Assembly: GCF_024346135.1 (NCBI RefSeq)
Contig: NZ_JAGQCJ010000005.1
Location: forward strand, 62,001 to 126,000
DNA from: Cyanobium sp. CH-040
GTDB taxonomy: Bacteria; Cyanobacteriota; Cyanobacteriia; PCC-6307; Cyanobiaceae
Length of the DNA: 64,000 nt
Reading direction: 5' to 3'
Shown one piece after another: positions 20,165 to 23,191 of this stretch. A program made the translations under genes and the position numbers. Positions within the stretch are counted from its first letter, which is position 1, and each line of letters starts with the position of its first letter. The notes below the pieces were generated by a model. The model was not told the DNA's origin, searched no databases, and saw only the letters and a program-made list of their open reading frames with translations.

Positions 20165-20245
20165 TCAGGCCTGCTCCAGGCGCTTGACGATCCAGGCCAT
20201 CAGCGCCAGCGAGGCGGCCAGGGCGATCAGCAGGGCGGTGGTCAT
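20165..20245 (-). CDS. Possible 26-residue single-membrane-helix peptide
   Basis: A short frame, MTTALLIALAASLALMAWIV then KRLEQA, lies 35 bases downstream of the polyferredoxin gene on the same strand. Hydrophobic helix plus basic end is typical of small photosynthetic or accessory membrane peptides. It does not match the small photosystem subunits I know, and no Shine-Dalgarno is visible. It is a weak call based on composition and position. Confidence 0.25.
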   Translation of the reverse strand: MTTALLIALAASLALMAWIVKRLEQA

Positions 20246-20280
20246 GGAGGTGCGGGGGGCGGCTGGGGGGTTGGGCGCCA

Positions 20281-22467
20281 TTATCCCGGCGGCAGGACAG
20301 CCAGGGGCTGCTGCAGCTGCGGCAGGGCCACCAGCCAGCGGCCGCCGGCGGCCAGCAGCAGGAACACCCCCAGTCCGGCCAGCTGCAGCCGCGGCGCCGG
20401 CCACAGCCGCCGCAGCAGCACCGCCGACCAGCCCAGCCCCAGCAGCACCGCGGCGCTCTGGCAGAAGGCGATCACGTGGACGTCGGCGCTCCAGGCGGGC
20501 AATGAGGCCGCTCCGGCCAGCAGCGGCGCCAGGCTCACCGGCAGGATGCGGCCGGCCTCGGCCATGCCCAGGGGCAGGTGGCGGGCCAGCAGCAGCGCCC
20601 AGAGCAGGGGCAGCAGGGCGTAGAGCGGCAGGCGGCGCTGGCCCGCCGGGAGCAGCGGCCGGCTCAGGAGAAACAGCAGGGCTGGCAGGGCCAGGGCCAG
20701 GCAGCCGAACGCCAGCCTCGGCAGCAGCGGCCCGGCCTGCAGGCTGCCGGGCGCCAGCGGCAGCCAGCCCAGCAGCCGTTGCCAGTGGTGCAGGCCGATG
20801 CCGCCGGCCAGCACCAGGATCAGCCCCGCCTCCCCGGCCGGCGCCTCCATCTCCCGCTGCAGGTCGGCGGCGGGGGGGCGCAGGCGCAGCTGCACGGAGC
20901 GGTGCGGGCACGCCGCGGCGCAGGTGAGGCAGAGCACGCAGTTGCGATTGTCGGCCAGGTGGGCGGGGTGGGTGCCGAGGGGACAGCCGGCGGTGGCCAG
21001 ACCCTCACCCACCGCCGGACCGCCCTTGAAGCAGCCGTAGGTGCTGCAGCTGCCGCTGCAGGTGCCGGCCTGGGCCCGCAGCTCCAGGATCGAGAGCTTG
21101 GCGAACAGGCCGTTCATGCCGCCCACCGGGCAGAGGTAACGGCACCAGAAGCGCTTCTCGAACAGCAGCGAGCCCAGCACCGCCCCGGCGGTGATCAGCA
21201 GCAGCAGGCAGCTGCTCAGCCAGGCGGTGTTCTCCAGGTCCCACACCTCCTCCCAGAGCAGGATCAGGGCGAAGCCGGCAGCCAGCAGCGGCGCCCCCCA
21301 GGCGTCGCTGTCGCCCCGGGGCCAGGAGCGCGGCCGCCAGCCCAGGGCGCGGGCGAGGCGCTGGCTGATCTCGCCCCACACCATGAACGGACAGAAGGAG
21401 CACCACAGCCGCCCCACCAGCGGATAGGCCAGCAGGATCAGCGGCCACCACCAGGCCCAGAACAGGTTCAGGGCGCCGTTGTGGGCCCGGTCCTGGGGAC
21501 CGAGCCAGAGCCACAGGTTCACCAGCACGAACACCCAGCTCACCAGGCCGAAGAGCAGGGCGTTCCAGAGCCGGGGGGAGCGCATCGCGAAGCGCAGCCG
21601 CGGCTTCCAGCGCCAGAGGTCGAAGCGGGCCCGGCCCGGCCGGGCGCCGGTCCAGAACACCTCATCGGGCAGGGTGGCGGGCAGGCTGGCGAAGGGGGCG
21701 CCGGGCCGTTCACTGGAGCTGTCGGCGGCGGCCTGGCGCAGGGCCCGTTCGATCACGCCCTCCAGCTCCGTCACGTTGCCCGGGAAGTCGTGGCTCTGGA
21801 GCCGCTTCACCACCGCCTCGCTCACCTGCGGCGGCAGCCGCCAGCCCAGCCCCCGGGCCCGCTGGCGGATGCCGTAGCGCAGCCACTCGCCCAGGTCCTG
21901 GCGCCGCACCCGCAGCGGCGGCACCCGGATCACGGTGGCGCAGCGGTCGAACTCCGCCAGGGCCGACTCGGTGGTGGCGAACACCCGGCCGCAGAACCGG
22001 CGCTCGCGGCCGGCAGGGCCCGGCGCCCGCCAGCGGCCTTCGCGCAGCAGCTCCAGCAGCCGCGGGCGCAGGCGGGGATCGGCCCGGTCGAGGTTGTCGA
22101 TGAGCAGGGCGCCGTCCCCCAGGCAGTCGAGCAGCGAACCGTCACCGCCGGAGGAGGCGCTGCCGAACAGGGCGGCCCCGTCATCGCCCAGGGTGGCGGC
22201 GTCGATGCGGGCCATCAGGCGCCGCCGCTGCGGGCTGCCGTAGTGGATCAGGGCAGCCAGGTTGTCCTTGCCCAGCCCGGGTTCGCCGCAGATCAGCACC
22301 GGCCCGGCCCCCGGGTCGGCGGCCGCCTGGCGCACGGCCTCGCGCAGACGCTCGGCGTAACGGCTGCTGCCCACCACCCCCCGGCGCGTGCGGCCCACCA
22401 GGTGGGGGGCCAGCTGCAGCAGGCAGGCCTGGCGGTCCGGGTCTCCGTGGGTGCCGTGCTCCGCCAT
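20281..22467 (-). CDS. AAA+ domain fused to a NapH/NosR-like membrane polyferredoxin
   Basis: A 728-residue fusion. Residues 1-250 resemble the AAA+ domain of sigma-54 activators: Walker A GEPGLGKDNL (61-70), ALFG (99-102), LLIDNLD (121-127) and FPGNVTELEGVIERAL. Residues about 300-500 are membrane helices with cluster motifs WCSFCPF and WCRYLCPVGGMNG. Then come CSGSCSTYGC and a ferredoxin motif CVLCLTCAAACP, ending in more helices. The GAFTGA loop is missing, the Walker B glutamate is Asn and the sensor-2 Arg is Thr. A redox-sensing or electron-transfer role is inferred. Start ATG at 22467. Confidence 0.8.
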   Translation of the reverse strand: MAEHGTHGDPDRQACLLQLAPHLVGRTRRGVVGSSRYAERLREAVRQAAADPGAGPVLICGEPGLGKDNLAALIHYGSPQRRRLMARIDAATLGDDGAALFGSASSGGDGSLLDCLGDGALLIDNLDRADPRLRPRLLELLREGRWRAPGPAGRERRFCGRVFATTESALAEFDRCATVIRVPPLRVRRQDLGEWLRYGIRQRARGLGWRLPPQVSEAVVKRLQSHDFPGNVTELEGVIERALRQAAADSSSERPGAPFASLPATLPDEVFWTGARPGRARFDLWRWKPRLRFAMRSPRLWNALLFGLVSWVFVLVNLWLWLGPQDRAHNGALNLFWAWWWPLILLAYPLVGRLWCSFCPFMVWGEISQRLARALGWRPRSWPRGDSDAWGAPLLAAGFALILLWEEVWDLENTAWLSSCLLLLITAGAVLGSLLFEKRFWCRYLCPVGGMNGLFAKLSILELRAQAGTCSGSCSTYGCFKGGPAVGEGLATAGCPLGTHPAHLADNRNCVLCLTCAAACPHRSVQLRLRPPAADLQREMEAPAGEAGLILVLAGGIGLHHWQRLLGWLPLAPGSLQAGPLLPRLAFGCLALALPALLFLLSRPLLPAGQRRLPLYALLPLLWALLLARHLPLGMAEAGRILPVSLAPLLAGAASLPAWSADVHVIAFCQSAAVLLGLGWSAVLLRRLWPAPRLQLAGLGVFLLLAAGGRWLVALPQLQQPLAVLPPG

Positions 22468-22579: not shown

Positions 22580-23191
22580 ATGACCCTCACCCTCTACGGC
22601 GGCGCCCGCACCCGCGCCTCCATGCCCCGCTGGTACCTGGAGGAGAAGGGCATCCCCTACCGCCTGGTGGAGCTCGACCTGCAGGCCGGCGAGCACCGCG
22701 AAGCGGCCTTCACCGCCATCAACCCCTTCGCCAAGCTGCCGGCCCTGGAGGACGACAGTCTCGAGGCCCCCGGCGGCGGGCCGCTGCGGCTGTTCGAGAG
22801 CGGCGCCATCCTGCTGCACCTGGCCGAGCGCCACGGCGGCGAATTCAACCCTGAGCTGGTGGGCGGGCCGGACGCCGCGGCCGCCCGCCGGGCCCTGGTG
22901 GCCCAGTGGCTGCTGTTCGCCAACGCCACCCTGGCGGTGGCCCTGTTCGTGCCCAGCAACCGCGAGCGCGAATTTCCGCGGCTGATGGACGTGCTCAACG
23001 CGCAGCTGGCCGGCGGCGGGCCGCTGGTGGGCGAGGCCTGGGGCGCCGCCGACTGCGCCGTGCAGGCCTATCTGGCCTACCTGCCGATCTTCTTGCCCCA
23101 GATCGACCTCAGCCCCTGGCCCCAGGTGCAGGCCACGATCGCCGCCGCCCAGGCGCGGCCGGCCTACCGGCTGGCCATCGGCCCGCGGTGA
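22580..23191 (+). CDS. Glutathione S-transferase family protein
   Basis: A 203-residue soluble protein. The N-terminal thioredoxin-like domain begins MTLTLYGGARTRASMPRWYLEE, with INPFAKLPALED carrying the cis-proline glutathione-binding motif and LFESGAILLHLAE the Glu-Ser pair that binds glutathione. An all-helical C-terminal domain includes GEAWGAADCAVQAYL. It overlaps pdeM by GTGA. The target is unknown; many cyanobacterial members detoxify electrophiles. Confidence 0.88.
   Translation: MTLTLYGGARTRASMPRWYLEEKGIPYRLVELDLQAGEHREAAFTAINPFAKLPALEDDSLEAPGGGPLRLFESGAILLHLAERHGGEFNPELVGGPDAAAARRALVAQWLLFANATLAVALFVPSNREREFPRLMDVLNAQLAGGGPLVGEAWGAADCAVQAYLAYLPIFLPQIDLSPWPQVQATIAAAQARPAYRLAIGPR

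What the first reader, a model, noticed from the sequence alone, without database searches (positions are those of the whole stretch)
20281..22467. AAA+ domain with lost catalytic residues fused to a membrane polyferredoxin
The N-terminus resembles sigma-54 activators, yet cyanobacteria lack sigma-54. Direct reading shows no GAFTGA loop, Walker B Glu replaced by Asn, and the sensor-2 Arg replaced by Thr. The C-terminus carries at least three [4Fe-4S]-type cysteine groups in a NapH/NosR-like membrane frame. It may be an ATP-binding redox device rather than a transcription factor.
Basis: partly seen in the sequence, partly recalled or inferred. Interest (0 to 1): 0.65.

Follow-up and report, generated by a model that had tools for sequence, protein, structure and literature searches.

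The report
Inactive AAA+ joined to membrane polyferredoxin
This picocyanobacterial gene joins a worn-out relative of sigma-54 activator ATPases to a membrane protein that should hold three iron-sulphur sites; the same joined protein, of unknown function, is found in most cyanobacteria sampled and is probably a redox protein, not the gene regulator that databases often call it.

Summary
The 728-aa minus-strand ORF at 20281-22467 has an AAA+ domain related to sigma-54 activators (residues 29-250) joined to a NapH-like membrane polyferredoxin (297-530) and a C-terminal membrane region. It belongs to a large cyanobacterial family: strong matches in 141 of 195 genomes of the class. Across 120 homologues the GAFTGA loop, Walker B glutamate, sensor-1 asparagine and arginine-finger segment are absent, but the Walker A lysine and 12 cysteines are invariant. 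The sensor-2 Thr is only a variable site. The AAA+ part is under purifying selection (dN/dS 0.1-0.3). This genome has no rpoN, and no DNA-binding domain was found. Relatives outside the picocyanobacteria usually carry an extra cNMP-binding-like domain. A paralogous clade lies directly upstream of cysK in 19 of 29 loci. Most likely it is a cytoplasm-facing membrane redox protein whose ATPase-derived module is kept as a non-hydrolysing regulatory or assembly part. Electron transfer, nucleotide binding and physiological role are inferred. I found no paper on this architecture. Interest is moderate: a widespread uncharacterised family built from known parts.

The parts
20281..22467 (-). 728-aa fusion protein gene (ATG start at 22467)
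   Evidence: homologues in 120 aligned loci
21952..22383 (-). AAA+ core, residues 29-172, related to sigma-54 activators, catalytic residues lost
   Evidence: structure match to 1ny5, Z 18.8, rmsd 3.5 over 226 residues for 27-273
21718..21951 (-). AAA+ lid, residues 173-250 (AAA_lid_14 at 186-246)
22264..22287 (-). Walker A GEPGLGKD (61-68); Lys67 invariant
22093..22107 (-). Walker B remnant LLIDN (121-125); catalytic Glu replaced by Asn
21967..21975 (-). sensor-1 position (165-167), TTE; the Asn is replaced by Glu
21769..21771 (-). sensor-2 position, Thr233 instead of Arg
20878..21579 (-). NapH-like membrane polyferredoxin, residues 297-530
   Evidence: Fer4_5, NapH/MauN profile at 344-527, model helices
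21388..21402 (-). C356-x2-C359-P motif at the end of the second membrane helix
   Evidence: invariant; helices
21127..21144 (-). C442-x3-C446-P motif after the fourth membrane helix
   Evidence: invariant
20980..21060 (-). C470-x3-C474-x4-C479 ... C495-P, cysteines of the soluble stretch
   Evidence: invariant
20905..20940 (-). C510-x2-C513-x2-C516-x3-C520-P, classic [4Fe-4S] motif
   Evidence: invariant; weak Fer4 matches
20329..20832 (-). C-terminal membrane region, residues 546-713, several helices, no named family

Best explanation
It is a membrane redox protein, not a transcription activator. The C-terminal half is a NapH-like membrane polyferredoxin with two Cys pairs at the cytoplasmic ends of membrane helices and two [4Fe-4S]-type motifs facing the cytoplasm, so it should pass electrons between a cytoplasmic donor or acceptor and the membrane. 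The N-terminal module descends from a sigma-54-activator AAA+ ATPase that has lost the sigma-54 loop and the hydrolysis machinery; it is kept, most likely, as a non-hydrolysing regulatory or oligomerisation module that sets the activity or assembly of the redox part. Shown: architecture, losses, conservation, purifying selection, no rpoN. Inferred: cluster binding, topology, direction of electron flow, regulation.
For: 12 cysteines invariant in 120 of 120 homologues; GAFTGA, Walker B Glu, sensor-1 Asn and arginine-finger segment absent family-wide. No rpoN in the own genome; in 339 genomes of the class only 2 matches pass the cut-off (62 and 24 bits). No DNA-binding domain in Pfam. AAA+ fold retained in the model: 1ny5 Z 18.8, rmsd 3.5, 226 residues. 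dN/dS about 0.1-0.3 for the AAA+ part in 10 pairs. The membrane part is the most conserved (60% identity between the window clade and clade A, against 40% for the AAA+ part) and occurs without the AAA+ part in other bacteria (Deinococcus, 32% over 281 aa). The paralogous clade B lies upstream of cysK in 19 of 29 distinct loci.
Against: No biochemical data for any member were found. The ferredoxin stretch (461-525) is modelled with low confidence and the membrane part has no clear solved relative. No conserved partner gene beside the window clade. Clade B keeps a GxGKT P-loop, so some members may bind or even turn over nucleotide.
Confidence: 0.6

Rival explanations
1. A membrane-bound redox sensor that regulates gene expression or another protein, as has been proposed for polyferredoxins of the NosR and RdxA kinds (own knowledge): the cluster state is read out through the AAA+ module to a partner.
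For: Regulatory ancestry of the AAA+ part and, in relatives, a cNMP-binding-like domain; clusters on the same side of the membrane as the AAA+ part (inferred).
Against: No DNA-binding domain; no conserved partner beside the window clade.
Confidence: 0.25
2. A transcription regulator that works with sigma-70, as TyrR and HupR do although they lack an intact GAFTGA loop (PMC3162934).
For: Same AAA+ ancestry; precedent for GAFTGA-less regulators.
Against: No helix-turn-helix domain in Pfam; joined to a polytopic membrane protein.
Confidence: 0.04
3. A sulphur- or thiol-linked electron donor acting with cysteine synthase under sulphidic or low-oxygen conditions.
For: Clade B sits directly upstream of cysK in 19 of 29 loci; some loci carry alternative psbA, petC, thioredoxin-like or heterodisulphide-reductase-like genes.
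Against: Holds for the paralogous clade only; clade A and the window clade have no cysK neighbour at +1.
Confidence: 0.1
4. A decaying gene: the AAA+ half is dead weight.
For: Catalytic residues lost.
Against: dN/dS well below 1 in the AAA+ part, and 141 of 195 genomes of the class keep a strong homologue.
Confidence: 0.01

Closest known systems
Bacterial enhancer-binding proteins (NtrC/PspF/NifA AAA+ domain)
   Same: AAA+ core and lid by sequence and model
   Different: no GAFTGA, no Walker B Glu, no sensor-1 Asn, no arginine-finger segment, no DNA-binding domain found, no sigma-54 in the genome
NapH/MauN membrane ferredoxin-type proteins (TIGR02163)
   Same: match over 344-527 with two membrane Cys motifs and a C-terminal ferredoxin stretch
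   Different: 43 bits against a cut-off of 213; AAA+ module in front and a further membrane region behind
Stand-alone '4Fe-4S binding protein' of Deinococcus plasmid pDFI1 (WP_027463891.1)
   Same: 32% identity over 281 aa including the Cys motifs
   Different: 452 aa, no AAA+ part
'Cyclic nucleotide-binding domain-containing protein' WP_281009908.1 of Pseudanabaena and 'nitrogen assimilation regulatory protein' BAZ78296.1 of Aulosira
   Same: paralogous clade B of the same fused family
   Different: about 900 aa, with an N-terminal cNMP-binding-like stretch; cysK directly downstream
GAFTGA-less regulators TyrR, HupR, VpsR
   Same: sigma-54-activator descent with a broken loop (PMC3162934)
   Different: they are soluble DNA-binding regulators (own knowledge); this protein is membrane-bound and no such domain was found

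Membership tests
sigma-54 activator (bEBP) | AAA+ core and lid of this clade | tested here: met
sigma-54 activator (bEBP) | GAFTGA loop | tested here: not met
   deleted in the window protein and the aligned homologues
sigma-54 activator (bEBP) | Walker B Asp-Glu | tested here: not met
   Glu absent in 120 of 120
sigma-54 activator (bEBP) | arginine fingers | tested here: not met
   segment missing in the alignment
sigma-54 activator (bEBP) | sigma-54 present in the genome | tested here: not met
   no PF04552 match in G000; controls ring
sigma-54 activator (bEBP) | DNA-binding domain | tested here: not met
   none found by Pfam at E up to 1; some true bEBPs also lack one (own knowledge)
NapH/MauN ferredoxin-type protein | two membrane Cys motifs plus a 4Fe-4S stretch | tested here: met
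NapH/MauN ferredoxin-type protein | score over the curated cut-off of TIGR02163 | tested here: not met
   43.4 bits against 213.05
NosR/NirI | N-terminal FMN-binding domain | tested here: not met
   no such domain in Pfam
NosR/NirI | membrane polyferredoxin | tested here: met
cAMP-receptor type regulator | cNMP-binding domain | tested here: not met
   absent here; present in relatives, where by eye the phosphate-cassette Arg is mostly missing
Fe-S protein | bound clusters | not testable with these tools
   needs EPR or absorption spectra

The most novel reading that the evidence does not exclude
A pseudo-ATPase derived from a transcription activator was recruited, early in cyanobacteria, as the nucleotide-responsive gate of a membrane electron conduit, so that electron flow through it is set by nucleotide binding and not by hydrolysis.
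Probability: 0.25. Interest if true: 0.75.

Novelty: new variant of a known kind. Interest (0 to 1): 0.5.

Why it matters
Most cyanobacterial genomes sampled carry this protein, relatives are annotated as a nitrogen regulator or a cyclic-nucleotide binder, and I found no paper on its architecture. If it is a regulated membrane redox protein it is an uncounted component of cyanobacterial electron flow, and a case of a transcription-activator ATPase turned to another use.

Tried and rejected
Loss of the cNMP-like domain through loss of cAMP signalling: not supported, the genome keeps seven adenylate/guanylate-cyclase-type matches. Functional neighbours of the window clade: the recurring flanking genes look like ordinary synteny. 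The TAATG-linked microprotein downstream: conserved but often elsewhere in the genome and also present without this gene, so probably not a partner. Solved relatives of the membrane part: no convincing match by profile, Foldseek or VIA-align 2, which does not show a new fold. slr0593 of Synechocystis ('cAMP binding membrane protein', lower at early points of iron deprivation, PMC3516471): I could not check whether it is a member. Paper searches for this architecture gave nothing. Spread outside cyanobacteria was not scanned in full: the single genome-contig scan kept only the 80 best loci, all with picocyanobacterial sequence; in 72,556 plasmid records only two cyanobacterial plasmids matched both parts.

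Full report
What is there. The minus-strand ORF 20281-22467 encodes 728 aa. Pfam gives Sigma54_activat at 32-172, AAA_lid_14 at 186-246 and two Fer4_5 stretches, all over the curated cut-off, and weak Fer4 matches at 505-522. NCBIfam gives several activators (NtrX, PspF, NorR, NifA) and NapH/MauN at 344-527, all far under their cut-offs.

The AAA+ part. Aligned with NifA (9qq6), the window protein has Walker A GEPGLGKD, no GAFTGA loop, D124-N125 at Walker B, TTE at sensor 1, a gap over the two arginine fingers and T233 at sensor 2. In 120 homologues the Walker A Lys is always kept, while the Walker B Glu and the sensor-1 Asn are never found and the finger and loop segments are missing. The glycine before the Lys is mostly Glu in the window clade (75 of 82) and in clade A (18 of 28), but Gly in the window protein and in all ten clade-B sequences. 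Sensor 2 varies. The predicted structure keeps the AAA+ fold (mean pLDDT 76.7 for the whole protein; 1ny5 Z 18.8, rmsd 3.5 over 226 residues). In ten close pairs dN/dS of this part is about 0.1-0.3, below that of the C-terminal region in eight of them. It is therefore a conserved pseudo-ATPase by sequence; whether it binds nucleotide is untested.

The membrane part. Twelve cysteines are invariant in 120 of 120. Two pairs follow predicted membrane helices 2 and 4, and eight lie in the following soluble stretch in two [4Fe-4S]-type patterns. With the AAA+ part in the cytoplasm, all fall on the cytoplasmic side (inference from helix count, and loop charges). This part is the most conserved of the protein. 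A stand-alone relative in Deinococcus shares 32% over 281 aa.

Not a sigma-54 activator. The own genome has no rpoN, and a survey paper reports sigma-54 and its activators absent from 29 cyanobacteria (PMC3162934). In 339 genomes of the class two matches pass the cut-off, at 62 and 24 bits.

Family. Strong matches occur in 141 of 195 genomes of the class (my count of rows with E at or below 1e-90; 157 have any match) and 94 of 200 of the own family (leaving out one weak row). The tree of 120 gives three groups: the picocyanobacterial clade with the window, clade A, and clade B. The clade A and B members scanned carry an N-terminal cNMP-binding domain, whose phosphate-cassette Arg is mostly missing by eye across the clades; the picocyanobacterial members are shorter and lack it, and a few clade-A ORFs of about 730 aa do too. 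On two plasmids it lies among psbA, petC, rhodanese, DsrE, glutaredoxin-like or thioredoxin-like genes, and in L147/L148 behind heterodisulphide-reductase-like genes.

Reading. I judge a membrane redox protein with a regulatory pseudo-ATPase most likely (0.6). A redox sensor comes next. The parts are known kinds; the combination, its spread and its lack of study are the point of interest.

Noticed in passing
window 20165-20281 (-): A small ORF starts in the stop codon of the gene (TAATG) and ends in a 26-aa single-helix microprotein (MTTALLIALAASLALMAWIVKRLEQA) found in 71 of 101 genomes of the family, often elsewhere in the genome and also where the fusion gene is absent. I could not identify it.
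   Followed up: partly
window 22580-23191 (+): A glutathione S-transferase-type gene lies divergently beside the fusion gene; a 209-aa gene in that place and orientation recurs in 28 picocyanobacterial loci.
   Followed up: partly
L147, L148: Clade-B genes lie behind genes with CCG-domain, 4Fe-4S dicluster and DUF4405 proteins, like a heterodisulphide-reductase island.
   Followed up: partly
G521:C25:15916-18030 and G533:C1:201687-203765 (L181, L182): Two picocyanobacterial genomes hold a second, clade-B-like copy (39% identity, ORFs of 1227 and 894 aa), both followed by cysK.
   Followed up: partly
G486:C8:7146-9193; G251:C1:2174879-2176856: The fusion is split into two overlapping ORFs: in G486 near the border between the AAA+ and membrane parts, in G251 within the ferredoxin stretch. 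Frameshift or real split not decided.
   Followed up: no
L076: A contig whose record title names Bifidobacterium breve holds a 72%-identical picocyanobacterial fusion gene; the label is probably wrong.
   Followed up: no
G119:C1:411956-412339: A 207-aa ORF in a genome of the class matches the sigma-54 DNA-binding domain (62 bits), unexpected in cyanobacteria.
   Followed up: no
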